Shown here piece after piece: positions 20,033 through 40,800 of a stretch of 46,437 bases of DNA. This stretch comes from Bacteroidales bacterium (GTDB lineage: Bacteria > Bacteroidota > Bacteroidia > Bacteroidales > ML635J-15), in the NCBI GenBank assembly GCA_027858835.1, contig JAQIBY010000179.1, positions 1 through 46,437 of the forward strand, written 5' to 3'. Both the position numbers and the translations under genes were made by a program. Below the pieces are notes generated by a model that did not search any database, was not told the DNA's origin, and worked only from the letters and a program-made list of their open reading frames with translations. Positions within the stretch are counted from its first letter, which is position 1. The number at the start of each line of letters is the position of its first letter.

Positions 20033-20104
20033 AATACGGTTTTTTGGCAATGAAAAATACAACAATTTTTAATGAAAACAAAAAAAATATTAAATCAGTT
20101 AATC

Positions 20105-21037
20105 TTATTCGAAAAAAGAACGTTGCCCTATTCTTGCATCCTCGATATTCCAACCGAAAGATATCTCTTCAGAGCCTGTAGTTACATTGCTTATGTCGCT
20201 AAATGTAAAATCATGGGAAATTGCAAAGTAATACTTGTCAAAAGTTAATCCCATCATTGCGACAAAAGAATCATCCGGTCTTAAGCTAAATGCGAACCAA
20301 AAGTCACCATAAAAAACCAATTTAATGTTGAAATCTGTTTGTATCGGTGTAACCTCGGTTGTTTTTATTAATACGGATGGAATGAGTTCAAAGTTTCTAT
20401 TATAGGGAAATTTAAAATTATATCCTGCGGATGCAAAGTAATGTCTTACCAATTGATTTGACTCTTCTTCCCAAGTTCCGGTGAGTTTCATTTTTGATTG
20501 AAATAATTGCGTAATGGAGAGTCCGACCCAGTAATTGTCATGGTACAAGTATGTGCCAAAATGTGCATCGGGAATTACAATTTGCAAACGTTCACTCATT
20601 AATATTGGTTCAAAACCATAGAAGTCTTCTTGTTCCAAACTCAAGCGGTAATGCATGAGTTGGGCAGAAAGTCCTAAGCCCAATTTTAATTCACGGTTTA
20701 ACTCCAAATGATACGCATAAGTAAAATTTGCACCGATGATTTCAATAGGTCCGAATTTATCATGGAACAGTTGACCACCAATTCCAATGTTTTCTTGTTT
20801 TAATTGCTGATGATAAGACACATATTGGGTTGAAGGAGATTCATTGACCCCCAACCATTGCTTATGTACGCTAAGTCTTAATGGTGAATGATCAGACACT
20901 GTCCCGGCAACGGCAGGATTCAAAATAAACATATTTTGGTAATACTGACTGTATAAAGGAAATTGTTGTGTAAACCCTGCCTTTGCAAGCATCAGAATTC
21001 CCAAAATTAATATGATATGTCTTATTTTATTTGTCAT
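20105..21037 (-). CDS. PorP/SprF family type IX secretion system membrane protein
   Basis: 310 residues, signal peptide ending near AGFTQQ, then FPLYSQYYQNMFILNPAVAGT and LRLSVHKQWLG. It lies 12 bases downstream of the 5216-aa adhesin gene, the position sprF holds after sprB, so it is probably the cognate export partner of that adhesin. The C-terminal half shows alternating beta-strand patterns (FWFAFSLRPDDSFVAMMGL) shared with the paralogue downstream. Outer-membrane localisation is from family knowledge. Confidence 0.9.
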   Translation of the reverse strand: MTNKIRHIILILGILMLAKAGFTQQFPLYSQYYQNMFILNPAVAGTVSDHSPLRLSVHKQWLGVNESPSTQYVSYHQQLKQENIGIGGQLFHDKFGPIEIIGANFTYAYHLELNRELKLGLGLSAQLMHYRLSLEQEDFYGFEPILMSERLQIVIPDAHFGTYLYHDNYWVGLSITQLFQSKMKLTGTWEEESNQLVRHYFASAGYNFKFPYNRNFELIPSVLIKTTEVTPIQTDFNIKLVFYGDFWFAFSLRPDDSFVAMMGLTFDKYYFAISHDFTFSDISNVTTGSEEISFGWNIEDARIGQRSFFE

Positions 21038-24000: not shown

Positions 24001-27000
24001 AAGTGCTATCGTCAACGATAGTAAATAGGTATTCTCCTGCAAAAATATTTTCAATAAAATCGTCATTGTCGAGAATTGTTGCGGGATCATCTGTCAGAAT
24101 CCATTCCATATTATATGGTGGTGTGCCTCCGTTTGGATTCAAATCAATATAGCCTGAATTATCACCATTGCAAAGTATATTTTGTACGCTGTCGAGTCCA
24201 AAATAAAGGGCAGGTGGTTGTATTATGGTGATAGAATCATTGGTTGTGTATCCGTTAGCATCGGTTGCTGTGACATAATAAGTTCCTGCCGGGATAAAAA
24301 TCATGACACTGTCTGTCCAGATTTCTGTGCCGCTTTCGTCTTCCCATGAGTAGGAGTAAGGTTGAACTCCGCCGCTAACTTGCAGCCAAGCACCGCCTGT
24401 TGTATCTCCGTTACATTGCACATTGCTTCCGATAATTGTATGTATCAGTTCGTCCGGTTGATTCAATGTAATTTGATCTTCTATCGTACATCCGTTATCA
24501 TCGGTTAATGTCAGGCTGTATGTTCCTGCCGGGACATTCAACAGAGTATCCTGATTTGATAGGATATTTCCGGGATCAGTAATGTCTTCCCATTGATAGT
24601 AATAAGTGGGAGTTCCACCGGATTCAATTGCCCAAGCATAAGCATCTGAGGCGCCAAATCCTGTTGCATCAACTCCACTGAGGCTTAAAGCCAATGGGTC
24701 AGGTTCCGGTAGGAAAACGGAATCGTATTGCATGCATCCATTTACGTCGGTTACGGTAAGATAATAATTTCCGGTTTCTAATCCGGTGACAGTATCTGTG
24801 TTTGAGATATTAGTGTTGGCTTCATCTTCCCAATAATAACTGAATGGATTAGTTCCTCCTGTCATTGTAACAAATAATGACCCTTCATTGCCTCCGTTAC
24901 AAAGTGGCATTGCTGTAACAAGGAAATTCATCTCAAGGGAGTCATTGGTTTCAATTTTTATTAAGGTATCAGCCATGCAGCCATTGAAATCGAAAACAGA
25001 AACATAATAAACGCCTTCGGGGAGATTAAATAGTGTGTCATTTGTTGATGCAAAACCATCCCATACATAATTATATGGTATTGTTCCTCCGCTTACATCA
25101 ATGCTAGCTGAAGCGGTTGAGTCGCCGTAACAAGTAACAACAGTTTGATAGGTGTCGGTGATTTCTAATACCGGAGGTTGTGAAATGATAACGGCTGTGT
25201 CCCAGGTATAACCTAGCGCATCTGTAATTGTTAGGAAGTAAGATCCGGCAGGTAAATCGTTAAAGTCTGCTTCATCAGAACTAAGAGTTACTACTGCATT
25301 TTCCCAATAGAATGAGTAAGGAGGTGTTGCTCCAAACGCTTCAGCTTCAAGCATCCCGGTTGAATCTGGTGCACATAAAACATTCTGATGAACAATGATA
25401 TTTCCACCAAGTGGATCGTTGGGTTCGGTTATTGTCACAGAACCATACCATTCGCAGCCATTTGCATCCGTTACGGTAACAGAATAATTGCCGGCATATA
25501 AATTGTCTGCAGTTTGATTTGTGGAAATTATTGTTCCGGGATCTGAGTCATTAACCCATTCATAAGTATATGTTGGTGTTCCACCGGTAGGATTTGCTGT
25601 TGCCGATCCATCATTATTTCCCCATGTTGAGACATTTGTATTTGTGGTTGTGGCATTGAGCACTGTAGGATCTGTAATTTCAATGCTGTCATTGATGAAA
25701 CAGCCGTTGTCGTCAGTAACCGTTAAATAATAATAATCAGAACCGACATTGACGAGTGTATCACTTAATGATATTAAACTTCCCGAGCTGTTTTCCCAGC
25801 TGTAGTTGTAATTTGGTGTGCCTCCACTAATTTCAATTCCGGCAGATGCATTGTTGTCGCCAAAGCAAAGTGGTTCTGCCGTTACAATCATATTAAGATC
25901 CAGCTCGTTCGGTTGGGTGATTGTAATACTCGTATCAGCCGTACATGCATTTTGGTCAGTGACAATTACGGTATAAGTTCCTGCCGGAGCATTTGCAATA
26001 TTATCAGTTATAGATAGTGTCGGGTCATCCCATTGATAGATATAGGCGAAAATCCCTCCCGATACATTTATACTTGCAGTTCCCGTACTGTCGCCAAAGC
26101 AAAGCACATTGGTATGATTGCCTGCAGTGATTATAAGTTCGGCAGGTTGAGTAATGATAACGGTTGTATCCCACTCGTATGCATTTGCATCTGTAATGGT
26201 AAGAAAATATGTGTCAGCCGGAAGTCCTGTAATTACGGATGAGTTGGATGACCATGTTGCGCTTGAATTTTCCCAATAATATGAATATGCAGGGGTTCCT
26301 CCGTAGCCGGATGCAGTGAGTTGTCCGGTTGAATCCGGTGCACATAAAACGTCATCATGGTTTGTGATATTTCCTCCTAGAGGATCATTTGGTTCTGTAA
26401 TTGTAATAGAACCATACCATTCACATCCATTGGCATCTGTTACGGTAACATTATAAGTGCCGGCATATAAATTGGTAATAGCAGCATTGTTCGAGATACT
26501 AACTCCTGGATTTGCATCGTCTTCCCAATTGTATGAATATGTGGGTGTTCCGCCGGCAGCAAGTACAGATGCAGAGCCATCGTTATTTCCCCAAGTTGTT
26601 ACATTCGTGTTGTTAATGCTTGCTGTTAATTCGCTGGGCTCAGTTAGTGTATATACGGTTTGTGTTTCACATCCGTTTGCATCTGTAACAGTCAGATAAT
26701 AATCTCCTGCCGGGATATCAATGACAGTGTCCGTTACTGAAATAAGCGTAGATGCATCATTTTCCCAGATGTAATTGTAAGCGCCTGTTCCTCCTGAAAT
26801 GTTTGCGCTTAGTGATCCGTCGCTGTCTCCAAAGCAAGTTGGATTTGCAGTAGTCGTGATGGAAATCTGAATTTCATCAGGTTCCGTGATTGTGATTGTG
26901 GTATCAGCAGTGCATCCGTTTTGGTCAGTGACCAGTACGAGATAAGTTCCTGCGGGAGCATTGGAAATGTTGTCGCTTGTTGAGTTGGTCGGATCATTCC

Positions 27001-30000
27001 ACAGATAATTGTATGGAGGGACACCTCCGTTAACAACTATGCTTGCAGTTCCTGCAGAATCACCGAAGCATAAGTTGTTGGTATGGTTTCCGCCGGCAAT
27101 AATGAGTTCTGCCGGTTGAGTAATTGTTACTGTTGTGTCCCATTCATAAGAGTTCGCATCGGTGATTGTTAAAAAGTAGGTGTCGGCCGGAAGGTTTGTA
27201 ATTGCTGCCGTATTTGCATTCCATGTTGCCCCGCTATTTTCCCAGTAATAGGAATATGCTGCTGTTCCTCCGTAAGCCTGAGCGGTAAGTGCTCCCGAGC
27301 TGTCCGGTGCGCATAAAACATTCTGATGCGTAATTATATTTCCTCCAAGTGGGTCGTTGGGTTCAGTTATTGTTACAGAACCTGTCCAAATGCATCCGTT
27401 TGCATCGGTTACAGTAATATTGTATGTTCCAGCACTTAAATTGTTTGCCGTTTGATTTGTACTGATAATTACTCCCGGATTTGAATCATCTTCCCATTCA
27501 TAGGAGTAGGTCGGAGTTCCGTCGCTCGGATTGACTGTTGCAGAACCGTCATCATTGCCCCAAGTTGATACATTGACCTGTGATATTGTCGCTGTGAGTT
27601 CGTCAGGTTGAGAAATGTTGACATTATCAATTTGATTGCACCCGTTGGCATCGCTTACCGTCAGGAAATAATCGCCAACGCCAAGATTTGAGGCAGTATC
27701 ATCAAGTGAAACAGGATTGTTGAGTGCGTCTTCCCAGAGATATGTATAGCCCGGAGTTCCGCCACTTACCACTGCAATTGCTTCTCCGGTATTGTCTCCG
27801 AAGCATAAAACATCTGTGCTGTTAATATTTATTGAAATGGCTGTCGGTTCGTTCAGTATAATGTTCTGTTGTGCAGTACAATTGTTTGCATCTGTCACGG
27901 TCAGCTGATAACTACCGGCACTTAAACCGGTTTGTGTCGAATTTGTATTTCCTGCGATTGGTGCATCCCAAAGATAGGAGTAAGGTGCTGTTCCTCCAGA
28001 TGCCGTTGCGGTTAATCCTCCATCAGATAAGCCTGAACATGATGGCATGCTATCTACTGAAATATTAAGTGTCAGTGAATTTGCAGGTTCTGTAATTGTA
28101 AAGTTTTGCGAAACGGGACCGCAATTATTATCATCAGTAAGGAAAAGCGTGTAATCACCTGCGCTTAGTCCTGAAATATTGTCTGCATTTACTCCCAAGT
28201 CTGTTCCTGAAGCATTTTCCCATGTGTAACTGTAAGGTATTGTGCCTCCACTCGCGGTAGTGAATATTTCTCCGGTATTATCTCCGTAACAGAGTATGTC
28301 GGTAATACTATCACCGGTAATTACTAGTGGTGTCGGTTCGTTGAGCGTTTGGCTTAAAATAATTTCACAGCCAAGATTATCCGTTACAATGACTTCATAA
28401 TTTCCGATGCTGAGATTACTCAATGTGTTTCCTGTTTCCAGCGGATAACCTGTCCAGCTAAATGTGTAAGGCGGATATCCATTGCTTGCAGTGACTGTTA
28501 TTTCTCCATCATTGCCACCGTTGCAGCTAATGTGCGTAGTGTCTGTAATTTCAGCACTTAATGTGTTTGGATCTTCGGGAACATTGATCGTGAGGATTAA
28601 TTCACAGGTTCCATCATCATTAATGGTGACATCGTAATCGCCGGCAGCGAGGTTTATTGCGGTTTCTCCGGATGAAACATTTGGATCCCAAGTATATGTG
28701 TATGGTGCTGTTCCTCCTGCAGTATTCAATGTAATGCTACCATCGCTATTTAACAGACAGCTGACGGGAGTAACATCAGGGGAGGCTGACAGGCCATTAG
28801 CCGGTTGTCCGATTGTGACAATAAATTCGACTTCACAGCCCCAGTCATCAGTGACAGAAACGGTATAATCACCGGCAGTAACATTTGTAATTTGTGTTCC
28901 TGATCCGTTGGGATGATCCCATGCATAATTATAAGCAGGAACTCCTCCGCTAACTTGAATTTCTGCAGTTCCGTCATTAACACCAACACATGATGCATCT
29001 GTAATGCTGAGGATGCTAACTTGTAATTCGGTTGCAGGTTCTATAATGACTGCATTTTCAATGCTCGTGCAAGCATTGTTGTCTGTTAGTGTGATGCTGT
29101 AATTTCCTGCGGGTAATCCGGTGATATTTTGTGTTCCTGCAGAAAGTCCGTTTTGTGTGCCGGAAGTGGTTCCGTTATCCCAAGCCAAGTCATAATCAGG
29201 TGTTCCTCCTCCTATATCTACGGTAATTATTCCGTCTGCTCCATTGTAACAGGAAACATTATCCGTTGAATTTACACTGAAACTTAGGTCGGTTGGTTCA
29301 ATCAGTGTGAAATTGTCAAAAACTTCACATCCGTTTGCATCTGTGATTGTTAAATTATAATTTCCAGCTTCAAGGTTGGATAATGTGTGTGATCCACTGC
29401 TGAGTCCTGAAATAAGGTCGTTGTTTAACCCATTATCCCATTGGAGTTCAAAGTCTGCAGTTCCTCCGCCAATCGTGTAATCAACAGAGCCGTTTGTTTC
29501 ACCAAAACATAAGATATCATTAATGGCATCTAAATTAATGCTAAGCACATTGGGTTGATTGATGGTGAAGTTGTAAGTTTCTGTGCATCCTGCTGCATCC
29601 GTAACATCAATTTGATAATTTCCTGCCGGAATGGCATTTATCGTATGTGGTCCACCAGCCGATGCGGGGAAATTTCCGTTGTCTGTGCCGTTTGTCCAAT
29701 CGATAGTATAATTTGGGCTACCTCCTGAAACGGAAAGTTCAAAGGATGCATTTGTATTTCCGTTGCAATCCGGTTCTGTAATATTATTGACAGTAATCAG
29801 AATTTCCGGATTGACGTTAATTGTGACATCGTCAGTTCCCTGGCATCCATTAATGTCTTCAACGGTAACAAAATATGTGTCGGTTGCTGTAAGTGTCACT
29901 GTATGTGATGCTTGGTCTGAAAGGCTATGACTCCAAAGATAGGTGTATGCCGGAGTTCCTCCCACAACATTGGTTGAAAGGTTTGTGTTTTCGTTGTAAC

Positions 30001-33000
30001 AGATTGGATTTGGAGCTGCATCAAGTGCGACTGTCGGATTTTCGTTGACAGTAACAATTACCTGATCTTCATTTGTACAACCGTTTGCATCCGTAACTGT
30101 GACAGTGTAGCTTGTTGATGCTGCCGGGCTAACCGGATAACTGTCATTTGGTCCCAATGCGGGAGTCCATGCATAATTGTAGGGTGGTGTTCCATCCGTT
30201 GTATTTGCTGTCAGGGTACTACTTTCGCCATCACAAATAACTTGTGGGCTTGCAGTTAAGTTAAGATTGGGGTTTTCGTTGATAATGAGCTCAACACTGT
30301 CATTTGCTGTACAACCGTTGAAATCAGTAATTGTGACATGATAATAGGTTGATGTTGCTGGACTGACAATGTGCGTGCTGCCATTACCAAGTCCGTTATC
30401 CCAGTTAAAGCTGTATGGTGCTGTTCCTGCAGCGCCAATTGCTTCCAGATCACTTGTAAAACCTTCGCAAATCGGATTTGGATTTGCTGAAGCCGTAACG
30501 CTCGGGGCAGGATACGCATCTAATGTAACAGAACCTTCAACCGTGCAGCCGTTTGCATCTGTTGCTATCACAGTATAGATTGTTGTTATTAATGGATTTA
30601 CCGTATGTGATTGTCCGAGACCGAGCCCGTTGTCCCAATTGTATTCGTAGGGAGGAGTTGTGCCATTTGCTGTTGCATTGATAATAGCATCTTCTCCGCC
30701 GCATACAGGGTTTGGAGCGCCTGTAACGACAATTGTGGGAATTGGATTGATTGTTACGTCAACAGTTGCTGTATTTGAACAGGAGTTATCATCCGTAATT
30801 GTGACTTCATAAGTTTCATCAACAATTGGGCTTACAGTATGTGTACTGCCGGCTCCCAGTCCGTGATCCCAGTTGTAGGAGTAGGGAGCAGTGCCGTTAC
30901 TGCCGCTCACGGATAAATCTGTACTTTCTCCGAGACAAAGTGGGTTAGGTGTTGCAATCGGGTTTGCTTCGGGAAGTTCGTGGACATTTACTGCCAAGCT
31001 TCCTGTTCCCATACAACCATTGGCATCGGTTACACTGACATAAAATATTGTGTCTGAAGCCGGTGTTACGCTTTGATTTTGTCCGGGACCTATGCCATCG
31101 CCCCAAAAATAAGTATAAGGTGCAATAGTTCCTGAACCGGTTGCACTAATGTTTGTTGTTTCGCCGATACAAACTGGGTTTGGTAAGGCATTTGTAGTTA
31201 CTGTCGGGATATCGCCGACGATGACATCAATAAAATCTTCAGCCGTACATCCATTAGCATCTGTTACCGTTACTGTATAGGTTTCATCGCTAATTGGTGT
31301 CACTGTGTGACTATCTCCGACACCAAGTCCATTATCCCATGAATAGGAATAAGGTGCGAGTCCGTTTGCACTGCTGGCGTTCAGATTGACAGGTTCTCCG
31401 TTACAAACCGGATTTGGAGTTGCGTCGGCAGTGACTACCGGAAGTTCATTGACAACAACTTCTATGCTGTCAATATCCTGACATCCTGTGTTATCAGTAA
31501 CTGTTACAACATAGGTTGTGTTACCGACCGGATTATCCCAGTGGGTTGCTCCAGCACCCAGACCGTTATCCCAATCAAAAATGTAGGGAGCAGTTCCATC
31601 GGTTGCAAAAGCTGATAAAAACACGGATTCAAGGCTACAAATCGGATTCGGATTTGCAGTTAAAAGTAAATTCGGTGAATCTGTGACTGTGACAGTTACC
31701 TGATCTGTGTTTTCACATCCATTTGCGTCTGTAATGCTCACTGTGTAAGTTGTCGTGTTGACCGGGTTTACCGTGTGGCTATTACCGGCTCCCAATCCAT
31801 TGTCCCAAGCGTAAGTATAGGGTGGAGTTCCATTACTGCCTACAGCTGAAAGTACTGAGTTTTGTCCCCCACATATTACATTCGGACTTGCAGAGGCGTT
31901 TACATCCGGTTGTTCATTAACCAATACCATCACATTATCTTCGACTGTACAGCCAGATGCATCAGTAACGGTGACGATATAATTCGTATTTACCGTTGGC
32001 GTAACATTCGGATTTTGCATGTTTCCCAAACCTTGGTTCCACACAAAATTGTATGGTGGAGTCCCATTGGAAACAGTAAGGTTCATGCTACTGGTTTCTC
32101 CTTCGCATAGTGGATTTGGATTCGCAGTGAGGTTTGTTGTCGGTAAGTCACTGACATTTATTGTTATATCATCTTGAGCTTGACACCCATTGTCATCAGC
32201 AATTGTGACTGTGTAAGTTGTTGCAATAAGCGGATTTACGGGATGCGATTGTCCTGCTCCTAAACCTTGATTCCATATGTAAGTGTAAGGTGCAGTTCCA
32301 TTATTTCCTGTTGCTGAAACGGTTGCATTTTCTCCGGAACAAATTGGGTTTGGATTAGCAGTTGCAACGACAGTGGGCTCTTCAAATGTGTTTACTGTGA
32401 CGCTGTCTTCTGCTGTACAGCCGTTTCCGTCAGTTACTGTCAGGTAGTAAGTTGTGGTGTCAGATGGTGTTACGGTGTGATTTTGTCCGTTACCTAATCC
32501 TGCGCCCCAGAAATATGTGTATGGTGCTGTGCTGCCGTTTGCAGTTGCACTTATTGTTGATGCAGTGTTTGGACAAATTGGATTTGGAATTGCATCTGTA
32601 ATAATGTTTGGTGCCGGTTCAACATCGACTGTAACTTGATCTGTGATACTGCATCCATTATTATCGGTTACAGTAAGGTTATAAGTTGTGCTTGAAACCG
32701 GAGTAACAATCGGATTTTCTATTGCAGGCAAACCATTATCCCAGGTATAGCTGAAGGGGGCTGTTCCGTTGGTGATATCCGGAAATAAAACCGCATTGTT
32801 GTCTTCGCAAATCGGATTTGGATTTGAATATAAATTTGAAACCGGGTTTTCATTGACATCAACAGTAATGTTATCAGAATTTGTACAAGCATTGTTGTCC
32901 GTTACTGTTACTTCATAATTCGTTGTTATTAACGGATTGTCTGTTTGGTTTTGTCCGGCTCCAAGTCCTTGGTTCCATTGATACGTATAGGGAGCTGAAC

Positions 33001-36000
33001 CATCAATTGCAATTGCTGAAAGATTTACTGTTTCTCCTTCGCAAATCGGATTTGGGCTTGCATCGGCAGTGACATTTGGTAAATCTAAGGTGTTTACGAT
33101 GATAGATTCTTCGGCAGAACATCCGTTTCCGTCAGTTACTGTTACTGTGTAAGTTGTTGAACTACTCGGATTGTCTGTTTGATTTTGTCCAGTTCCAAGT
33201 CCTTGATTCCAATCATAACTGTATGGCGCCGTTGTTCCAAAACCCAGTGCAGATAAATCAACGGTTTCTCCTGAACAAACAGGATTTGGAATCGCATTTA
33301 CAGTAATGGTAGGGGCAGGTTCGATCGTAACATCAACAAAATCTTCAACTGTACATCCATTGGCATCAGTAACTGTAACAAAATAAGTAGTTGCAGTAAC
33401 TGGTGAAGCTACCGGATTTTCTATCGGAGGTAATCCATTGTCCCAGACAAATGAATAAGGTGTGGTTCCATCTGCAGGATTCGGATACAATGTAGTACTT
33501 CCTGTTTCACAAATTGGATTAGGGTCAGCAATTAAGTTTGCTGTCGGATTTTCATAAATGTCAACTAAAATGCTACCTTCGGTTGTACAACCAGTAGCGT
33601 CAGTAACGGTTACTGAATAAGTTGTCGGGATTGTTGGATTGACAATATGGGTTTGTCCTGCACCTAATCCATTATCCCAAACATAGGAGTAAGGTGCTGT
33701 GCCATCAGTTCCCGTGATTGAGAGTGTTACATTTTCGCCGGAACAAACCGGGTTTGGTGCTGCCGTTGGGCTTGCTGGTGGCATATCTGTTACAATCACA
33801 TTTACAGCTTGACTTGCCGTACATCCGTTGCCGTCTTGAACGGTTACGGTATAAGTATTATCGGAAGGAGGAGTCACCGTGAAGTTTGTGCCTAATCCTA
33901 ATCCATTGTCCCAAATATAAGTGTAGGGAGGAATTGTTCCTCCTGCAATTGCTGCTAAATCTGTATTGTCTCCAACACAAATCGGATTTGGCGTTGCATC
34001 TGCCGTAATTGTCGGAAGGTCCCAAACGGTTACTGTTACCATATCTTGTGAAGTACAGCCGTAATCATCGGAAATTGTTACCGAATAATCTGTGGTCATG
34101 GTGGGACTGATTGTATGATTGCTGCCAACTCCTAAACCCTGATCCCATGAATAAGAATAAGGTGACTGCCCTTGATTACCGATTGCATTAAGTGTGACAT
34201 TTTCTCCTTCGCAAATTGGATTTGGAATGGCATCGGCAGTGACTACCGGTAGCTCTGTGACTTGAACAAAGATGCTTGCATAATCTTCGCAGCCGTTTGC
34301 ATCGGTTACAGTTGCTGAATAAGTTGTACTTGATGCAGGTGTAATAACGTGATTCGCTCCATTTCCTAAACCATTGTCCCAGAAAAATAAATATCCCGGA
34401 GTTCCACCGCTTGCAGAAGCTGAAACATTGCTAATTTCAAGTGCGCAAATTGGATTTGGAAAAGCGTCCAGACTTATTACCGGTTCATCGTGCACTGTCA
34501 ATGTGATCTGATCTTCACTTGTGCAACCGTTTGAATCAGTTATTGTTACTGAATAAGTTGTTGTCGATGCCGGACTGACCGTATGATTTGCACCCGGACC
34601 GATTCCATTATCCCATTGATATGAATATCCGGGAGATCCACCTGCACCAACAGCAGATAAGTTACTTGTTTGCCCCGGGCAAATAGTGTTTGGTGTTGCG
34701 TTTGCTGTTACTGTCGGTGTGTCATTGACATTTACTGTAATTGCTTCCTCAGTTGTACAACCATTGTTGTCCGTTACTGTTAAAGTGTAGGTGGTTGTTA
34801 CCAATGGTGATGCACTTGGATTTTGTGCATTTCCGAGTCCATTGTCCCAACTGAACATAAAGGGACTGGAACCACCGGTTAAAGTTGTTGTGATATCAGT
34901 ATTTTCTCCACTGCAAACAGGATTCGGATCTGCATCTAAGGTGATGTTGGGCAGTGAGCTAAAGTCAAGTAGCACGGAAGCTTCTCCGGTACATCCTGTA
35001 TCATCAGTTACAGTAACAGTATATGTTGTTGAACTTGCCGGTGATACAGAATGACTGTCACCTGCACCTAATCCGTTATCCCAAAAATAGGTGTAGGGGA
35101 CGGTTCCTCCACTTGAGGTGACAGAAAGGTTGGATGAGCCTCCGGGACAAATTGGATTTGGACTTGCAACAGGATTCGGAATCGGATTGTCAGTGGTGTT
35201 TAATAATACTGCATCGGATGCGGTGCAGCCATTTCCATCTGTAATTGTCACGGAATAAGTTGTTGAGCTGCTGGGGTTGTCAGTTTGATTTTGTCCGGCA
35301 CCGAGCCCATTATCCCAAAAATAGGAATAAGGAGCAATTGTGCCACCACCAATCGCTGTCAGATTGACAGTTTCTCCGCTACATATAGGGTTTGGTGATG
35401 CGTCTGCTGTTATATTGGGGAGTGAATTAACGGTAACCGTAATTGCATCTTCTGCAGTACAGCCATTGTCGTCGGCGACACTCACTGTATATGTCTGGTC
35501 GCTTAAAGGAAACACTGTGTGAGAATCACCCACACCGAGCCCGTTTGACCAATCGTATGCATATGGTGGAGTGCCATCAGTTGAGGTGACGTTTAAATTA
35601 GTGCTTGTATTTTCGCAAATGGTTAGCGGGCTGGCTGTTGCAGTGGGAATAGGTAGTTCCCATACATTTACAGTGACATCATCAGTCCCCGTACATCCAT
35701 TGGCATCTGTTACAATAACGGTATAAGTTGTTGTGTCGGCCGGTGAAATAATGTGAGAATCTCCGGCACCTAACCCATTATCCCAAATGTATGAATACGG
35801 CGATGATCCACCGACACCACTTGCAGAAAGTGTACCAGTTTCCAGCGCACATAATGCACTCGGAAACGCATCCGCGCTAACGCTTGGCAGATCAAAAACC
35901 TGTACATCAACTTGATCTTCTGCAGTGCAACCATTAATGTCGGTAACGGAAACGGAATATGTGTAATCCACAGTTGGGTTGATGAGATGAGATTGACTGT

Positions 36001-36700
36001 TTCCAAGACCACCATTCCAATTGTAGTTATATGGAGAGCTGCCGTTAATAGCATTTGCTTCGAGGTCAACAGTTTCTCCGCTACATACCGGATTTGGATT
36101 TGCAGTTGCAGTTACTGTGGGGTTTTCAAAAACGGTTAAGGAGATGTTATCTTCTACCGTACACCCATTTGCATCGGTAATCGTTACTGAAAAATTTGTA
36201 TTTCCTGAAGGAGAAACGGTATTTGTTTGATTGCCGGGCAAGCCATTGTTCCAGCTGTAGTTGTATGGAGTCGCACCACCGGAAGGATTCGCATCAATAA
36301 GTGCAGATTCGCCTTCGCAGATTTCTGTAGGGGATAAGTAGAGACCGGAAACCGGCAACTCAAATACTGTGACCGTTATTTGGTCCGTTGCAGAAAGCCC
36401 ATTGTCATCAGTAATTGTTACAGTGTAAGTTGTCGAAATGGCAGGGGTGACATTTTGTGTATTCCCGTTTACGCCATTGCTCCAGGCGAAAGTGTATGGA
36501 ACTGTTCCTAAACTGCCACTTGCACTTAATGTTGATTGTTCTCCCTGACAGATATTCTGTGGTGCAGCAGCAGCAGTAACTGTTGGACCTCCTTTATATA
36601 TCTGATTGTTTGATTCCTGACTTTGTGCAAGTACAAGATTCACAGACATTAAGTATGCCAGTGTAACAGAAATCAAGTGTATTAATTTTAACCTCATCAT
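21050..36700 (-). CDS. 5216-residue SprB-like surface adhesin with type B T9SS sorting domain
   Basis: A giant secreted protein of about 540 kDa. A signal peptide (residues 1-26, ending LVLAQ) is followed by 29 back-to-back Ig/PKD-like repeats of exactly 78 residues (about 37-2298). About 35 SprB-type repeats of 72-88 residues follow (about 2299-5125), and then a type B CHU_C sorting domain (5126-5216): AAFSPNGDGFNDVW, VYNRWGQLLYE, WDGTYNG and PTGAYIYYV. The 78-residue unit has P-P-I-C-x-G-E near its start, APYSYxWDNGLG in the middle and TDxNGC near its end, so each unit has two Cys that may form a disulfide. SprB-type repeats read CxGxxDG...GGTPPYxYxW...L.AGxYxxTVTDxNGC. Known SprB proteins are moved along the cell surface or mediate adhesion; which applies here is unknown. 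The next two genes encode PorP/SprF partners. The frame is intact throughout. Confidence 0.93.
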   Translation of the reverse strand: MMRLKLIHLISVTLAYLMSVNLVLAQSQESNNQIYKGGPTVTAAAAPQNICQGEQSTLSASGSLGTVPYTFAWSNGVNGNTQNVTPAISTTYTVTITDDNGLSATDQITVTVFELPVSGLYLSPTEICEGESALIDANPSGGATPYNYSWNNGLPGNQTNTVSPSGNTNFSVTITDANGCTVEDNISLTVFENPTVTATANPNPVCSGETVDLEANAINGSSPYNYNWNGGLGNSQSHLINPTVDYTYSVSVTDINGCTAEDQVDVQVFDLPSVSADAFPSALCALETGTLSASGVGGSSPYSYIWDNGLGAGDSHIISPADTTTYTVIVTDANGCTGTDDVTVNVWELPIPTATASPLTICENTSTNLNVTSTDGTPPYAYDWSNGLGVGDSHTVFPLSDQTYTVSVADDNGCTAEDAITVTVNSLPNITADASPNPICSGETVNLTAIGGGTIAPYSYFWDNGLGAGQNQTDNPSSSTTYSVTITDGNGCTASDAVLLNTTDNPIPNPVASPNPICPGGSSNLSVTSSGGTVPYTYFWDNGLGAGDSHSVSPASSTTYTVTVTDDTGCTGEASVLLDFSSLPNITLDADPNPVCSGENTDITTTLTGGSSPFMFSWDNGLGNAQNPSASPLVTTTYTLTVTDNNGCTTEEAITVNVNDTPTVTANATPNTICPGQTSNLSAVGAGGSPGYSYQWDNGIGPGANHTVSPASTTTYSVTITDSNGCTSEDQITLTVHDEPVISLDAFPNPICALEISNVSASASGGTPGYLFFWDNGLGNGANHVITPASSTTYSATVTDANGCEDYASIFVQVTELPVVTADAIPNPICEGENVTLNAIGNQGQSPYSYSWDQGLGVGSNHTISPTMTTDYSVTISDDYGCTSQDMVTVTVWDLPTITADATPNPICVGDNTDLAAIAGGTIPPYTYIWDNGLGLGTNFTVTPPSDNTYTVTVQDGNGCTASQAVNVIVTDMPPASPTAAPNPVCSGENVTLSITGTDGTAPYSYVWDNGLGAGQTHIVNPTIPTTYSVTVTDATGCTTEGSILVDIYENPTANLIADPNPICETGSTTLYPNPADGTTPYSFVWDNGLPPIENPVASPVTATTYFVTVTDANGCTVEDFVDVTIEPAPTITVNAIPNPVCSGETVDLSALGFGTTAPYSYDWNQGLGTGQNQTDNPSSSTTYTVTVTDGNGCSAEESIIVNTLDLPNVTADASPNPICEGETVNLSAIAIDGSAPYTYQWNQGLGAGQNQTDNPLITTNYEVTVTDNNACTNSDNITVDVNENPVSNLYSNPNPICEDNNAVLFPDITNGTAPFSYTWDNGLPAIENPIVTPVSSTTYNLTVTDNNGCSITDQVTVDVEPAPNIITDAIPNPICPNTASTISATANGSTAPYTYFWGAGLGNGQNHTVTPSDTTTYYLTVTDGNGCTAEDSVTVNTFEEPTVVATANPNPICSGENATVSATGNNGTAPYTYIWNQGLGAGQSHPVNPLIATTYTVTIADDNGCQAQDDITINVSDLPTTNLTANPNPLCEGETSSMNLTVSNGTPPYNFVWNQGLGNMQNPNVTPTVNTNYIVTVTDASGCTVEDNVMVLVNEQPDVNASASPNVICGGQNSVLSAVGSNGTPPYTYAWDNGLGAGNSHTVNPVNTTTYTVSITDANGCENTDQVTVTVTDSPNLLLTANPNPICSLESVFLSAFATDGTAPYIFDWDNGLGAGATHWDNPVGNTTYVVTVTDNTGCQDIDSIEVVVNELPVVTADATPNPVCNGEPVNLNASSANGLAPYSYSWDNGLGVGDSHTVTPISDETYTVTVTDANGCTAEDFIDVIVGDIPTVTTNALPNPVCIGETTNISATGSGTIAPYTYFWGDGIGPGQNQSVTPASDTIFYVSVTDANGCMGTGSLAVNVHELPEANPIATPNPLCLGESTDLSVSGSNGTAPYSYNWDHGLGAGSTHTVSPIVDETYEVTITDDNSCSNTATVDVTINPIPTIVVTGAPNPVCGGEDAIINATANGTTPPYEYNWDNGLGLGQSHTVNPLITTIYTVIATDANGCTVEGSVTLDAYPAPSVTASANPNPICEGFTSDLEAIGAAGTAPYSFNWDNGLGNGSTHIVSPATSTYYHVTITDFNGCTANDSVELIINENPNLNLTASPQVICDGESSTLTANTTDGTPPYNYAWTPALGPNDSYPVSPAASTSYTVTVTDANGCTNEDQVIVTVNENPTVALDAAPNPICYNENTNLSTNVVGGTPAYTYLWSHSLSDQASHTVTLTATDTYFVTVEDINGCQGTDDVTINVNPEILITVNNITEPDCNGNTNASFELSVSGGSPNYTIDWTNGTDNGNFPASAGGPHTINAIPAGNYQIDVTDAAGCTETYNFTINQPNVLSINLDAINDILCFGETNGSVDYTIGGGTADFELQWDNGLNNDLISGLSSGSHTLSNLEAGNYNLTITDANGCEVFDNFTLIEPTDLSFSVNSTDNVSCYNGADGIITVDIGGGTPDYDLAWDNGTTSGTQNGLSAGTQNITGLPAGNYSITLTDNNACTSIENAVIIEPATELQVSILSITDASCVGVNDGTAEIQVSGGVPAYNYAWDHPNGSGTQITNVTAGDYTVSVTDDWGCEVEFIVTIGQPANGLSASPDVTPVSCLLNSDGSITLNTAGGTAPYTYTWDPNVSSGETAINLAAGDYDVTINDDGTCELILTINVPEDPNTLSAEITDTTHISCNGGNDGEITVTASNGYPPYTFSWTGYPLETGNTLSNLSIGNYEVIVTDNLGCEIILSQTLNEPTPLVITGDSITDILCYGDNTGEIFTTASGGTIPYSYTWENASGTDLGVNADNISGLSAGDYTLFLTDDNNCGPVSQNFTITEPANSLTLNISVDSMPSCSGLSDGGLTATASGGTAPYSYLWDAPIAGNTNSTQTGLSAGSYQLTVTDANNCTAQQNIILNEPTAISININSTDVLCFGDNTGEAIAVVSGGTPGYTYLWEDALNNPVSLDDTASNLGVGDYFLTVSDANGCNQIDNVNISQPDELTATISQVNVSTWGNDDGSATVNPSDGTPTYSYEWEDDSNPGVIISTNQTANNLSAGTYNITVTDANGCIWTGSVTITEPNDPLGGNIITHQNVLCAPDSSGALTAQAYGGTAAYSYYWENSGATWNANTAAITNLPADTYFLTITDANSYEWDTTVTITQPAELIIAGGNHTNNLCFGDSAGTASIVVNGGVPPYNYLWNDPTNSTSDNISNAPAGTYLVLVTDQNGCTADTTITITEPDEIQISITTTANPTCFGDSDGSLSANISGGTGAYNYIWENDASTLISVTDTVIDIPAGDYYLTVTDANGCETQTVYTLTEPSELTASINNTNVTTWGNNDGSASVLAAGGTPTYSYNWEDDANPGVSISNNAAITNLYAGTYNVTVTDANGCEWYGSITITEPNDPLGGNITNHDDVLCAPDSTGQLTASGYGGTPAYSYYWENSSATWSSNSSVITGLPADTYFLTITDANAYEWDTTVIITQPAELIITAGNHTNVLCFGDSTGTASINVSGGIFAYIYQWDDPTLSITDNIANAPAGTYTVIVTDQNACTADTSITITQPNELDLNMIVTAEPLCFGDNNASAGIEISGGTPNYNYSWENSSGSLISLSDTLVNVGSDYYYLTVTDDNGCFINDSIEITDPTVLNATTTNTNVSTWGNNDGSATANPTGGTPTYTYEWVNDSDPGTIISTNQTADNLYAGNYSVTVTDANGCEWYGSVTITEPNDPLGGNIIVHQNVLCAPDSTGMLEAEAFGATPPYSFYWENAVVTLSSDEADFNDLPAGSYFLTITDALGYTWDTAVIISQPPVLEITDTYQTVVTCYGDSTASASIDVSGGTIPYNYVWDGFASTNDTLFNLPEGVYYVSVFDFNGCMADTLIKIETNDSLEMNFLVTAMPLCNGGNEGSLFVTMTGGTNPFSYYWEDEANTNISNTDTVTGLETGNYYLTVTDVNGCMQYDSVFLPEPDPLALSLSGVDATGFGASDAYAWAIESGGTPTYYYQWEDITDPGNILSNQDTLLNVPAGTYSLTLTDDNGCTIEDQITLNQPDELIHTIIGSNVQCNGDTTGGAWLQVSGGVQPYSYSWEDESGTEIWTDSVMIFIPAGTYYVTATDANGYTTNDSITIIQPPALYFGLDSVQNILCNGDNSGYIDLNPNGGTPPYNMEWILTDDPATILDNDDFIENIFAGEYLFTIVDDSTCVYDTIITITQPDSLEVILEAQGDITCYSYNNGFINIDVIGGTPPYQYEWLDDTNTVFETGTDSIGNLGQGAYAVLVSDANFCSSDTMNFFITEPEEFIFNAGIDSVFCFGDSTGSVQLNPAGGTPAFDYVWIFEGDTIIDSNFPALFNLEAGDYEIFVNDANTCLYDTTLTVHEPASYPSLSIDLTDSLDCFGLSNGEITAQINDGTPDYHLIWSNGTGGDGELEDISAGIHIITGIEAGNFIFQLSDGYGCSVIESIFVPEPEEIIIDLFSNNISCNGADDGQIQSVVSGGTSPYFYSWDGNPAGIDTAANNLIPGWHTLEITDANGCTQIDSSYIYQPDSLLVELRDSLFLNCYGDENASTFPIISGGSIPYQAIWTNETGDTIHNTPYITNLGAGMYYLNVTDANGCSFSDSLLVYEPNALSASTESFLTSCPASADGYAVINMDPGAGTPPYSYDWNNPEHSVTDTAINLNAGWWYVTVTDDNNCIYLDSVEVFSPDSLHMSFTITPVQCNNVPGSAVISTIGGTPSYSYEWSTGDSTGIVPNIPAGIHVVTVTDSHSCTWAQQVMIESIGNIHPEIEITEPISCYGARDGELTAILDDGALPFNFDWNTGDTTQSIDELMSGTYFVQVIDAWGCIGNDTLTLTQPEGVTVDFITQDVLCKGGSSGWAQAIANGGNGNFSYAWDADFYGNPYTNLSEGYYTVIATDQEGCSGMETVYIDQPDSAIYALAEARDVTCYGFNNGSGIAQGFGGQAPFQYIWYGPGTDTIYQQQTGATLFPGNYTLLVTDDNGCKYDTIIKIRQPSPIYINVSGSGNPSCSGLEDGWIQLDSITGGTPPYSIHLNGGGISWTQQNPYIDSMPSGQYIINVYDVNRCLQNNDVIILTLVESEENCIRIPAAFSPNGDGFNDVWQIDHLDLYRRCLIQVYNRWGQLLYEGGWNDPFWDGTYNGNPVPTGAYIYYVNLGTNSRKPLTGTVTVIR
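21326..29806 (-). repeat. array of about 35 SprB-type repeats
   Basis: Units vary from about 72 to 88 residues, each ending in a (T/N)(E/Q)P hinge. The change from fixed-length 78-residue units to SprB units is sharp at VNP-EILITVNNITEPDCNG. Toward the C-terminus the units diverge and become richer in Trp and acidic residues. The array ends at the CHU_C domain. Confidence 0.8.
24701..27604 (-). repeat. higher-order repeat, three copies of about 969 bp (four SprB units each)
   Basis: Equivalent codons at the beginning of successive blocks fall at 27604, 26635, 25666 and 24700, giving periods of 969, 969 and 966 bases (323, 323 and 322 residues). Each block starts with a unit lacking the usual Cys and reading TWGN(N/D)DG, and next has a VLCAPDS unit. 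A fourth, decayed block runs from 24700 to about 23718, where TWGNNDG has become GFGASDA. Confidence 0.85.
29807..36592 (-). repeat. 29 in-frame 234-bp repeats coding 78-residue Ig/PKD-like domains
   Basis: Every unit I counted is 78 residues with no insertion or deletion across about 6.8 kb, although the amino-acid sequences differ considerably. A phase check on DNA agrees: the conserved Cys-codon region at 36161 and the next at 35927 are exactly 234 bases apart. The first unit has the early Cys (NICQGE) but has lost the late one (NGL instead of NGC), unlike the other 28. Confidence 0.85.
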
Positions 36701-36882: not shown

Positions 36883-37806
36883 TTAAAACATAGGTTGGTA
36901 TTGATTTCCTGTTTTTGAGCCTAAATCATAAGCAATTGAAATTTCATGACCACCTTTTGCTGCACTCATTAATTGATTAATGATAATATCATATGAGTAC
37001 ATGAAAGTAAGGTTTTGATATTTGTAGCCAAGGTTCAAAGCAATGGCATCTAAATGGCTGTAACTAAGCCCTGCAAGCATTGATTCATTATATTCCCACA
37101 AACCCCCGAATTCAAAAGTAAAAGGTGCACCGCCAACGATTTCCATATTTATATAGGGATGAATTACTGAAATAGCTTGTCTGCCTAGTGGTATGTGCGC
37201 TCCTGATTGAATGAAAAAATGTCGAACCGATTGAATACCACTGTCGTGATTGTCGTATAGGCGATATTTTGATTTGAATAGTTGCATGATTGAAAATCCG
37301 ACATAATAATTGTCACTAAAAGCAAGTAAGCCGGCATTTGCATCGGGTTTCCAAACTTTGTCAGATAAATTTTCAATCACAACTTCATCGGTATCATCGT
37401 ATAAATCAATTAAACTGCCGTCAATTTTTGATTGCATGATTGTCCAAGCCATGCCGAATGACAAATTCCATTCCTGATTAATATTTAATAGATAGGCATA
37501 ATTAATCATGAAAGCATTTCGGGTATTTGCTCCGGTTTTATCATTCATAATGATAAGCCCTGCAGCCATATCATCTCTGAAAAGGTAGGAGCCGCCCAAG
37601 CTTGAAGTTGTTGGGCTGCCATCAAATCCAACCCATTGTGACCGATGATTTAAAACAATGTTCGGTTTTTCTGGGTCAGCAGCAAAGGCAGGATTGTAAT
37701 AATAATTGGAAAATATGGTATGCCTGAATTGCGGAATTTGCTGCGCAAAACTGCTTCCTGCCAGAATAATTAATAATATGATTAGTCCTGTATGTTTTGT
37801 TTTCAT
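36883..37806 (-). CDS. PorP/SprF family type IX secretion system membrane protein
   Basis: 307 residues with a signal peptide ending near GSSFAQQ and the mature signature IPQFRHTIFSNYYYNPAFAAD, a variant of the family's YNPAxAG start. NHRSQWVGFDGSPTTS then corresponds to the HKQWLG...SPST block of the two paralogues downstream. It begins one base after the stop of the 1319-aa adhesin, so it is most likely that adhesin's partner. It is more distant from the other two PorP/SprF copies than they are from each other, as expected if each tracks its own cargo. Confidence 0.9.
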   Translation of the reverse strand: MKTKHTGLIILLIILAGSSFAQQIPQFRHTIFSNYYYNPAFAADPEKPNIVLNHRSQWVGFDGSPTTSSLGGSYLFRDDMAAGLIIMNDKTGANTRNAFMINYAYLLNINQEWNLSFGMAWTIMQSKIDGSLIDLYDDTDEVVIENLSDKVWKPDANAGLLAFSDNYYVGFSIMQLFKSKYRLYDNHDSGIQSVRHFFIQSGAHIPLGRQAISVIHPYINMEIVGGAPFTFEFGGLWEYNESMLAGLSYSHLDAIALNLGYKYQNLTFMYSYDIIINQLMSAAKGGHEISIAYDLGSKTGNQYQPMF

Positions 37807-37807
37807 C

Positions 37808-40800
37808 TTATCTAATTATTGTCAAATGCCCTTTATGGACATCTCTTCCATTTCCTAGATCGAGTAAATAATAATAGGTTCCTTCGGGGAGATTATTTTC
37901 TTTGAATTTCCCGTTCCAGTCATTGTTGTATCCTGTTTGATGATACACCTGATTCCCATTTCGATTGAATATCCAAACCTTTGAGAAAGGAAATTCTTCA
38001 ATGTTTTCAATAATCCAAACATCATTTTTCCCGTCACCATTTGGGGTAATGGTATTGTGAATAATGACGCAATATTCCGATTCTATTAATTCAATCTCAT
38101 AATCAAAATAACAATCATTAAAATCGGTAATGCTTAAATAATAAAAGCCGTCAGTAATGTCTGTTATTTCCGGGTTTGTGCTACCGGTTGACCAAGCATA
38201 GTAATATGGTTCTGTACCACCACCGGTATGCGTTATTATTTGTCCGTCAGCGATAGAAGAGCAGGAGGGTTGAATGATTTCAACATTCGGATTAATGCTG
38301 TCGGGTTGTATCATGGTGATTTTGACAGTGTCTCTGCAATTAAAGCGGTCTGCTGCGTAAATTGTATAATGTCCGGCTATAAGATTTCTCACTGTATCGA
38401 GTGTTGAAATCTGTTCCCCTTTGTGTACCCATTCAAAATTAAGTGGAGTAAATCCAAGTGGAATATCTGCAAAAGCAATTCCTGTTGAATCTCCAAAACA
38501 CTTAATGGATTGAATGATATTTACCTCCGCATCTATTTGTCCAACTTTATCGACAATGATTTCGGTTGAATCCTGACATCCATGATCATCAGTAACAGTC
38601 ACTCCGCCTTCACCGGTTTCTAATTCAAGCGCATCCGCAGCATTTTCTCCACTCGACCATATGAAATTGTAAGGTAGAGTTCCTCCTGTTGCTTGTGCTT
38701 CTCCTGAACCTGCACTAACACCACATTCTACAGGGTCTGTAGTTGCAGAAATTTCTAGACGGTCAGGTTCTGTTAGCGTGATTTCATTTTGCACATTGCA
38801 TCCATGAGCATCTGTCACTGTAAGGCGATATAGATGGTCAGCATCCAGATCGTATGCCAAGCTATCATTGTAAGTTGTTCCTGATGACCAGTTGTAGTTG
38901 TAAGCTTGTGTTCCTCCTTGAACCTGTGCAGTGACACTTCCGTCTTCCAATCCGAAACATGAAATATGTTCAATGTTTGTGAAGCTTATGCTTAAATTGT
39001 CCGGTTCATCGATAACAATAGGTTCTACGAGTTCACATCCATTGGCATCGGTAAGTGTTACCGTATAGGTTCCTGTGTTGAGTAGTGGTATAGTATCAAC
39101 ATTTGTTGGATATCCATTCCATTCGAGCGTATATGGGGATGTTCCGCCAAATGGTTCAACGGCAAGCCATCCGTCACTTAATCCCTGACAGCTTGGTTCT
39201 CCAATACTTACGTGTAATCCGAGACTGTCGGGTTGTGTGATATATTGTGTGACAGTATCTTCACATCCGTGTGAATCAGTGATGCTGCAAACATAAAGCC
39301 CCGGTGGTAAATTGGATATTGAATCATTGGTTTCGCTGAAATTATGAAACCATTGATATTCGTATGGTGGTGTTCCGCCTTCAGGATGAATCGCAATGTT
39401 TCCATTCGAAGCATTGTAGCAATCAATTATTGTCGCATTTGCCGTGGCGATTAGTGTATCCGGTTGGATTACCTCTATATCTTCGGTAAGCAGACAATTA
39501 TTTTGATCAGTTACTGAAACAGTATAAATGCCTCCGGGAACATTTTCAACATGAGTTCCGGTAAATCCGGCTGCCCACTCAATATTATATGGAGGAGTGG
39601 CACCGCTAATTTGTATGTCAATGCTGCCATCGCTATCGCCATGACAATCGGTTGGACTTGTTGTGGCATTAATACTTAATGCTGTTGGCGGTTCATTTAT
39701 ATATATTGAATCTACAATTGAGCAGCCCATCCAGTCAGTAATTGTAACATAATGCAAACCGGCCGGTAAATTATTTGCGGTGTTATGATTCATTCCATCG
39801 GTTGCGTAAGGATGTGACCAATCATAATAAAACGGATACTGCCCGCCGCTTGTTGATGCTGTGATGGAACCAGTATTTTCTCCGTGGCATAACACTTCTT
39901 CAGCCTCCATGCTGTTGATAATTGGAGGATTGATTTGTATGGAAATATCATCAGAGGTTGTGCAGCCATAGTCGTTTGTTGCCGTTACAGCGTAATAACC
40001 AGGTTCAACTTCTAAGGAATCAACTGCATCCATCATACCGGTATGTATATCACCGGTGCTCCACATAAATGTCAAGGGTGCCAGACTGTCTGTTACTTGT
40101 GCGTAAATGGTATTAATGGTATCTCCGTAGCAATAACTGCCTGGAGGTGCATAAAGATTCATTTGTAATTCTGATTTTGGTTGAGGCTTAATATAAGTTC
40201 CCGGAAATGCAGTGTCCTGAATGAAATTTTCCATTTCCCAGGTTTGGTCAAACCAGGTTAAATCAGCATGTCCTAGCGGGATTTCCCACGAAAAGAGCGG
40301 TCCTATTTCAAAGGGTCCAATATCTTTTTCTTGACTTTCATTTTGATTTTCTTCGCCTGTTGAAACTCCTGGCGATTGTACTGCCGGCGATGTCAGTGAG
40401 ATAATTTGACTGCTGTTTGTTTCAACATCAGGTAGTGTAAATTCAGGCAATGTTGCCGGCTCAATGGCTTGTTTAAACGGTGTTTCAATTTCGATTGACA
40501 CCGAAAGTGCATTAATGGTGAGCACGAAAGCAATGGAATCCCATGTATGGTTTCTGATGGTAGGAGATATGTCATAGGCGACATCAATGTACATTGAATC
40601 CCATTCATGACATGGATAGGTGATGGTTAAATCGTGTCCTACCGGGACATGGATGGTGTCTTCAATGCCTTGTTCATATAAAAAATCGCTATTTTCCGGG
40701 TCGGTTATTTCATATGGTAAATCCAATGGAAATGCCAGTTTTGCCCAGATTGTCGGACAGAATTCAATATCCTGAACCATGTAATTATAGACATCAAAAT

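What the first reader, a model, noticed from the sequence alone, without database searches (positions are those of the whole stretch)
29807..36592. 29 repeats of exactly 78 residues with zero length variation
Units differ a lot in sequence but none has gained or lost a codon over 6.8 kb, while the SprB units that follow vary in length freely. Strict length with loose sequence suggests selection on rod geometry (a fixed rise and twist per domain), or homogenisation by recombination followed by drift. Two Cys per unit could add one disulfide per domain, making a stiff stalk.
Basis: seen in the sequence. Interest (0 to 1): 0.6.

Follow-up and report, generated by a model that had tools for sequence, protein, structure and literature searches.

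The report
Disulfide-stapled rod of 29 Ig-like domains
A giant bacterial surface protein carries 29 old, very different copies of one small domain whose length almost never changes, and the pattern of lost cysteines suggests that each domain is bolted by a disulfide bond to its neighbour rather than to itself, which would make a stiff stalk.

Summary
The array is real: 29 Ig-like units (window 29804-36586, minus strand) in a 5216-residue T9SS type B surface protein. 28 of 29 units are exactly 78 residues; unit 1 has 77 and lacks its second cysteine. The strictness is unusual: about 1,005 inferred substitutions against 2 length changes (one at the array's edge), versus one change per about 84 substitutions in 57 control arrays. 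Arrays at the same locus in four other genomes of the family hold 2-8 complete units, all 78. Recent homogenisation is rejected here. Instead there is a hidden 3-unit period, and a 3-unit block duplication is visible in a relative. The following SprB units do not vary freely: they contain a 323-residue four-unit super-repeat. The main new inference is that the cysteines pair between domains, C13 of unit n with C65 of unit n+1: losses co-occur across junctions (phi 1.00 in the window, 0.64-0.83 in three other sets, with exceptions) and within a unit in only 1 of 2,108 units. The nearest solved fold is the Aureispira grappling-hook protein GhpA. The bond was not seen in coordinates.

The parts
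21050..36700 (-). giant ORF, 5216 aa: signal-peptide-like N-terminus (by eye), 29 Ig-like units, about 35 SprB-type units, C-terminal sorting domain
   Evidence: ORF; translation; Pfam; anchors
29804..36586 (-). array of 29 Ig-like units; units 2-29 exactly 78 aa
36356..36586 (-). unit 1: 77 aa, has first Cys (C13) but not second (C65)
29804..30037 (-). unit 29, last of the strict array
   Evidence: longest end branch
30974..31909 (-). units 21-24, modelled (pLDDT 95.3, pTM 0.64)
   Evidence: PDB matches
21311..29803 (-). SprB-type units, W-to-W steps 75-87
25166..28072 (-). three copies of a 323-aa four-unit super-repeat (27104-28072, 26135-27103, 25166-26134), each with one junction where C13 and the next C65 are both absent
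21062..21310 (-). CHU_C / TIGR04131 T9SS type B sorting domain
20105..21037 (-). PorP/SprF-family carrier next to the giant's C-terminus; no cysteine
19121..20065 (-). second PorP/SprF-family carrier; no cysteine
36883..37806 (-). PorP/SprF-family carrier between the 1319-aa SprB protein and the giant; no cysteine
37808..41767 (-). 1319-aa SprB-repeat protein with type B sorting domain, syntenic partner

Best explanation
The 29 units are the stalk of a giant T9SS type B cell-surface protein. Each unit is a compact Ig/PKD-like beta-sandwich. Cys13, in the A-B loop at the C-terminal pole of domain n, most likely bonds to Cys65, in the F-G turn at the N-terminal pole of domain n+1, so that every junction is covalently stapled and the stalk is stiff. 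A compact domain held at both poles tolerates substitutions but hardly any change of length. The array grew mainly in three-unit blocks long ago and has since diverged to near synonymous saturation. Shown: unit lengths, divergence, three-unit period, conserved locus, sorting signal, carriers, fold prediction, cysteine co-loss. Inferred: the bond itself, the stiffness, and the reason for the length constraint.
For: Length: 28 of 29 units 78 aa; 21 of 21 complete units in four other genomes; about 1005 substitutions against 2 length changes, one of them at the array edge, versus 47,400 against 562 in 57 control arrays. Age. Three-unit growth: permutation p 0.0014 (period 3) and 0.0004 (period 6), 11 periods tested; relative G004 units 3~6, 4~7, 5~8 at 0.78, 0.99, 0.79 nucleotide identity; four of the five starred two-row sister pairs in the tree are three apart (few columns, bootstrap not settled). 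Staple: across-junction co-loss phi 1.00 / 0.79 / 0.83 / 0.64 in window, relatives, named loci and phylum set, in each set above all of 1,000 within-array shuffles; within-unit double loss 0 of 73, 0 of 710, 0 of 802, 1 of 523. In the window giant the model pairs all 59 C65 with 59 of 60 C13, against 55 pairs and 9 lone cysteines for within-domain bonding. Unit 1, with no predecessor, lacks only C65. At 12 of 12 lost junctions listed for this giant's family C65 has become Tyr or Phe and C13 Thr or Gly. Fold: GhpA fragments are the best PDB matches over the whole four-domain model (Z 14.0-15.8, rmsd 3.5-4.8 over 291-294 residues). Sorting and carriers; SprA in the genome.
Against: No coordinates were available, so no S-S distance was measured. 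Co-loss has exceptions: 11 of 651 junctions in relatives, 6 of 713 in named loci, 9 of 482 in the phylum set; counted by locus, co-loss / exception is 1/0, 5/5, 5/4 and 2/6, so in the phylum set more loci show an exception than a co-loss. Some exceptions trace to masked letters or to one protein with extra cysteines (made with an earlier model), others are unexplained. The cysteine test only asks for a Cys in a stretch of 19 or 31 residues. Co-loss lineages number roughly nine, not the raw counts; the window's four are copies of one or two ancient events. The alternative C65(n)-C13(n+1) pairing also correlates in two sets, through alternating arrays (phi 0.36, 0.56), but not in the window or phylum set (-0.07, -0.02). 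SprB units carry the same cysteines and still vary in length, so the staple alone does not explain the strictness. pTM 0.64 leaves inter-domain angles uncertain.
Confidence: 0.64

Rival explanations
1. The units are equal in length because recombination between repeats keeps homogenising them, or because they are young copies.
For: G004 units 4 and 7 are 99% identical in DNA and the block 3-5 matches 6-8; another array in the same genome consists of near-identical copies (70-residue steps at 0.91 residue identity).
Against: In the window array the highest nucleotide identity between units is 0.64; pS averages 0.70 and lies between 0.68 and 0.78 at every separation, no lower for neighbours; same-codon frequency is 0.425 against 0.401 at saturation.
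Confidence: 0.07
2. There is no special selection on rod geometry: this is a compact subtype of Ig-like domain with no loop that tolerates indels, and the array is the most extreme of many.
For: Other strict runs exist at similar identity (7 steps of 76 at 0.42, 6 steps of 86 at 0.46); L171 has 49 units with lengths 74-77 and 190 substitutions per change, L090 352.
Against: Pooled controls expect about 12 length changes for 1005 substitutions and 2 are seen (Poisson about 5e-4 by my arithmetic, before allowing for selection of the extreme among 58).
Confidence: 0.3
3. The two cysteines form one bond inside each domain.
For: Two cysteines per unit at fixed spacing; exceptions to the across-junction rule exist.
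Against: Units losing both cysteines: 1 of 2,108, while 145 lost one only; losses pair across the junction. In canonical Ig topology the A-B loop and F-G turn lie at opposite poles (recalled; strand order).
Confidence: 0.08
4. The giant is the moving gliding adhesin (SprB role), its stalk acting as a lever on the gliding track.
For: SprB repeats, type B sorting domain, PorP/SprF neighbours; GldJ and GldB above cut-off in the genome.
Against: None of the three neighbouring carriers has any cysteine, whereas the F. johnsoniae SprF C-tail Cys-Xaa-Cys is required for normal continuous movement (PMC12635249, passages read). No C-X-C tail in any of the 16 PorP-family proteins found in the genome; one has two tail cysteines.
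Confidence: 0.15

Closest known systems
GhpA, grappling hook protein A of Aureispira sp. CCB-QB1 (PDB 9flp, 9fls, 9flu-9fly, 9g8b)
   Same: Giant protein with long tandem Ig-like arrays; best fold match of both modelled parts of this protein; profile match of the units; C-terminal stretch alike.
   Different: Sequence identity of the aligned domains 20-27%; assembly into a hook was not tested; the paper was not held and not read.
SprB of Flavobacterium johnsoniae
   Same: SprB repeats, type B sorting domain, PorP/SprF carrier next door (SprB itself from passages of PMC12635249 and PMC9870892).
   Different: 29 near-exact 78-residue units ahead of the other SprB units; carriers lack the cysteine tail needed for movement.
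SasG / Aap of staphylococci
   Same: Single-chain stiff surface rod from repeats of fixed length (128 residues) whose number varies by strain (passages of PMC4458895).
   Different: Single-layer sheets, no covalent cross-links, attached to a Gram-positive cell wall; here beta-sandwiches with a probable disulfide at each junction.
Pfam Ig_7 (PF19081), PKD (PF00801) and SprB (PF13573)
   Same: The scanned 900-residue stretch of the array scores above all three cut-offs.
   Different: At E <= 1e-22 the strict 78-residue subtype was seen in three or more copies only in this family (in one search only 14 candidates per genome were scored).

Membership tests
T9SS type B surface protein | C-terminal CHU_C / TIGR04131 sorting domain | tested here: met
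   71.6 bits against cut-off 35; PF13585 72.2 against 27
T9SS type B surface protein | dedicated PorP/SprF carrier encoded nearby | tested here: met
   three PF11751 genes flank the ORF; synteny in G004, G012, G041
T9SS type B surface protein | T9SS translocon in the genome | tested here: met
   SprA 2714.4 bits
SprB-type moving gliding adhesin | SprB repeats (PF13573) | tested here: met
   100.9 bits in 34001-36700 and 108.4 bits in 21050-23050, cut-off 28
SprB-type moving gliding adhesin | carrier with periplasmic Cys-Xaa-Cys C-tail | tested here: not met
   no cysteine in any of the three carriers
SprB-type moving gliding adhesin | gliding genes in the genome | tested here: met
   GldJ 475.8 bits, GldB 252.2 bits, both over cut-off; other gliding genes not searched
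SprB-type moving gliding adhesin | helical movement on the cell | not testable with these tools
   needs live cells; the named relatives are uncultured assemblies
GhpA-like grappling hook | tandem Ig-like domains of the GhpA kind | tested here: met
GhpA-like grappling hook | assembly into a multi-chain hook | not testable with these tools
   assembly was not predicted; this feature is recalled, not from a call
PF19081 Ig_7 | score above curated cut-off | tested here: met
   81.6 bits against 27.3 for 34001-36700, 7 stretches

The most novel reading that the evidence does not exclude
Giant T9SS surface proteins across Bacteroidota are covalently stapled beta-sandwich rods: one disulfide crosses nearly every domain junction (C13 of n to C65 of n+1), a general way of turning flexible Ig-domain chains into stiff stalks. 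In this protein the rod is so regular that one residue of length is not tolerated, and the three-unit period marks its turn (every third domain facing the same way) as well as its way of growing.
Probability: 0.2. Interest if true: 0.75.

Novelty: new variant of a known kind. Interest (0 to 1): 0.55.

Why it matters
Tandem beta-sandwich proteins such as titin and fibronectin are strong but do not form highly elongated structures (stated in PMC4458895, passages read). A disulfide across each junction would be a simple answer to how Bacteroidota build very long stiff stalks from such domains, and it is directly testable. It would concern a large class: among loci chosen for resemblance, 61 of 73 named loci and 19 of 20 phylum loci hold arrays of at least three such units, and 752 of 802 and 493 of 523 scorable units there carry both cysteines. 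It also warns that two cysteines per repeat need not mean a bond within the repeat.

Tried and rejected
Rejected: recent homogenisation; within-domain disulfide; 'SprB lengths vary freely'. A second alternative pairing, C65(n) with C13(n+1), fits alternating arrays only. I also considered that an aromatic pair replaces the bond at lost junctions: C65 does become Tyr or Phe, but the Trp, Tyr or Phe that follows the C13 position is often aromatic in units that keep the cysteine too, so I do not claim it.

Led nowhere: profile A3 against PDB gave no hit at 1e-6; a single unit against PDB gave only a chance NHL-repeat hit, so GhpA cysteine positions could not be read; a PorP query found no named relatives; the tandem repeat finder reported no row in the array. 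End effects point the expected way but weakly: first units lacking only C65 16, only C13 10; last units lacking only C13 14, only C65 7; run ends are not always true array ends. Literature searches touching such proteins or a junction disulfide showed none in the listings seen; several listings were capped, and the GhpA paper is not held and may already show it.

Rows dropped: L043 (duplicate contig of G005), L044, L074, L075 (own-genome repeat proteins) were left out; L100-L104 are the relatives again and were left out of the named set; one search dropped L043 and one L044 ORF; one search dropped one unit identical to another; one search kept only arrays with at least 13 anchors and no masked letters (57 controls plus this array; the controls include the SprB part of this protein and the whole giants of its relatives). 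Control arrays are not phylogenetically independent, and the length-change counts are parsimony minima. In one search only 14 candidates per genome were scored. The 20 phylum loci were chosen from the best SprB hits.

Change after checking: confidence in the best explanation was lowered from 0.68 to 0.64 and that of the within-domain rival raised from 0.06 to 0.08, because the aromatic-pair argument was withdrawn and the by-locus count of exceptions in the phylum set is now told.

Full report
What is there. The window holds an uninterrupted 5216-residue ORF on the minus strand (21050-36700). After a signal-peptide-like start (by eye) come 29 tandem units (residues 39-2299; 29804-36586), then about 35 SprB-type units, then a CHU_C / TIGR04131 type B sorting domain. 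Three PorP/SprF-family genes and a 1319-residue SprB-repeat protein flank it. The genome (3.6 Mb, 184 contigs, 99.07% complete) has the T9SS translocon SprA and the gliding genes GldJ and GldB. The four genomes with the same array are, by matching contig lengths, uncultured Bacteroidales / Marinilabiliales assemblies.

The observation. Units 2-29 are each exactly 78 residues; their cysteines lie at alternating steps of 52 and 26 without exception. Unit 1 is 77 residues and lacks the second cysteine. Mean pairwise identity is 0.46, range 0.29-0.68. So the claim 'zero length variation' is right for 28 of 29. A 900-residue stretch of the array scores best as SprB (100.9 bits), then Ig_7 (81.6), then PKD (44), all over cut-off.

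Is it unusual? I compared arrays of the same domain superfamily. At pairwise identity 0.42-0.50 only 18-25% of unit pairs in control arrays (orthologous arrays left out; 19-28% with them) have equal length, against 90-93% here, every mismatch here being due to unit 1. Counting inferred substitutions on a tree of units against the fewest length changes, this array has 1005 against 2 (one of the two is the step onto the first SprB unit), the best ratio of 58 arrays; 57 controls pooled have 47,400 against 562, or 84 per change; the next best are 352 and 190; the SprB part of the same protein has 120. At the pooled rate about 12 changes would be expected. By my arithmetic the Poisson chance of 2 or fewer is about 5e-4, to be discounted because the array was chosen as extreme.

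Relatives. Of 31 genomes of the family, 5 carry units of this kind at E <= 1e-22, the one same-genus genome (83% complete) not among them. At the syntenic locus (in G005 only part of the neighbourhood was fetched) G004 and G012 have 8 units each, G041 two, and G005 three complete ones in a broken assembly; all 21 complete units are 78 residues. In relatives the array follows a head of roughly 800-930 residues with a glycine-rich stretch and other parts, which the window protein lacks: there the array starts soon after the signal peptide. Copy number thus ranges from 2 to 29 at constant unit length. Of 395 genomes of the class, 13 had any hit at that threshold and, apart from the window genome, none more than two (14 candidates scored per genome).

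History. pS averages 0.70 and lies between 0.68 and 0.78 at every separation, no lower for neighbours; the best nucleotide identity between two units is 0.64; the same codon is used at shared residues in 0.425 of cases against 0.401 expected at saturation. There has been no recent homogenisation. But similarity has a hidden period: pairs three or six units apart are more alike than others (permutation p 0.0014 and 0.0004 among 11 periods tested), 21 of the 40 most similar pairs by rare shared residues are a multiple of three apart against 126 of 406 overall, and adjacent units are slightly less alike than expected (p 0.047 by identity, 0.010 by the weighted score). In G004 units 3-5 match 6-8 at 0.78, 0.99 and 0.79 nucleotide identity. 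In the tree four of the five well supported two-row sister pairs are three apart (G004 3/6 and 5/8, G012 3/6, window 14/17; the fifth is G004 1/2), and the identical G004 4/7 is also three apart; most forks are unresolved and the bootstrap had not settled. Amplification in three-unit blocks explains this; a rod in which every third domain faces the same way could add to it and cannot be excluded.

The SprB part. W-to-W steps there run 78, 80, 84, 81 three times as a 323-residue super-repeat (the other two copies are 57 and 61% identical to the reference copy). In this stretch length differences between SprB units are fixed by position.

Fold. Units 21-24 were modelled with 36 sequences: pLDDT 95.3, pTM 0.64, all-beta sandwich-like strand pattern. 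The best PDB matches are fragments of GhpA, the grappling-hook protein of Aureispira: Foldseek E down to 1.4e-17, and in the second look Z 14.0-15.8 with rmsd 3.5-4.8 over 291-294 residues across all four domains. The next chain, ICAM-5, has Z 13.6, tied with the lower GhpA rows, but rmsd 11.1; among the rows shown, other chains with 200 or more aligned residues have rmsd 5.7 or more. The SprB quartet (pLDDT 86.5, only three sequences) has a like strand pattern and the same best matches, with rmsd 8.9-10.4.

Disulfides. In Ig topology the A-B loop, where C13 sits, is at the pole where the chain leaves the domain, and the F-G turn, where C65 sits, is at the pole where it enters (recalled topology; strand order). 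Two cysteines of one domain would then be far apart, while C13 of n and C65 of n+1 would meet at the junction. The losses agree. In the window giant four units lack C13 and each is followed by a unit that lacks C65; no mismatch occurs in 63 junctions, and unit 1, which has no predecessor, lacks only C65. That leaves all 59 C65 paired with 59 of 60 C13. With one uniform method the across-junction table (both, only C13, only C65, neither) is 67/0/0/4 in the window, 621/0/11/19 in relatives, 693/5/1/14 in 61 named loci with arrays (of 73 scanned), and 465/6/3/8 in 19 of 20 loci from a phylum-wide search; within-unit double loss is 0 of 73, 0 of 710, 0 of 802 and 1 of 523. The observed across-junction co-loss exceeds all of 1,000 within-array shuffles in each set. 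Against this: loci with at least one co-loss / one exception are 1/0, 5/5, 5/4 and 2/6. The exceptions of an earlier run are printed: some are masked letters, five come from one protein with extra cysteines, others remain unexplained. At the 12 lost junctions listed for this giant's family C65 is Tyr or Phe and C13 is Thr or Gly; other lineages show various residues. Co-loss was seen in this giant's family and in L090, L132, L158, L164, L170, L177, L187 and L194, so roughly nine lineages.

What it probably does. A T9SS-exported, carrier-anchored stalk. Taking about 4 nm per Ig domain (recalled), 29 units would span about 115 nm and the whole protein perhaps 250 nm. Whether it glides is doubtful: in F. 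johnsoniae the SprF C-tail Cys-Xaa-Cys is needed for disulfide attachment to GldK and for normal continuous movement (PMC12635249, passages read); the three carriers here have no cysteine at all, and of 16 PorP-family proteins found in the genome one, beside GldJ, has two tail cysteines, not in C-X-C spacing. A static or differently driven adhesin, or a part of a larger assembly as in GhpA, is more likely. With the head missing, the first Ig units would be at the tip (inference).

Limits. No coordinates were returned, so neither bond lengths nor twist and rise were measured. Co-loss counts are not independent events. The GhpA paper could not be read and may already describe such bonds; my claim is only that the searches listed did not show it.

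Noticed in passing
L074 (G000:C42:32000-38695) and L075 (G000:C105:30000-36466): Two further repeat proteins of the same genome with steps of 70 and about 71 residues; the 70-residue array is near-identical (0.91) and both run close to contig ends, so true copy numbers are unknown.
   Followed up: partly
window 25166-28072: Four-unit, 323-residue super-repeat inside the SprB region, each copy with one junction lacking both cysteines and Tyr in place of C65.
   Followed up: yes
L040, L041, L066 (relatives of the giant): Relatives carry a head of about 800-930 residues, glycine-rich in part, before the array; the window protein has lost it or never had it.
   Followed up: partly
L090 (G027:C52) and L177: Arrays in which cysteines alternate so that only every second junction would be stapled.
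   Followed up: partly
L071 (G228:C10:14000-30000): Repeats with an extra cysteine pair and no C13 in the usual place; they break the across-junction rule.
   Followed up: no
G000:C64:118031-120725 (L214, L200): A PorP/SprF-family gene directly before GldJ is the only one of 16 with two C-tail cysteines.
   Followed up: no
window 42596-46152: Two adjacent CLC-type chloride channel genes with CBS domains in tandem.
   Followed up: no
L042 / L043 (G005): Two contigs share the same upstream genes and break inside or near the array; probably an assembly fault in the repeats.
   Followed up: no
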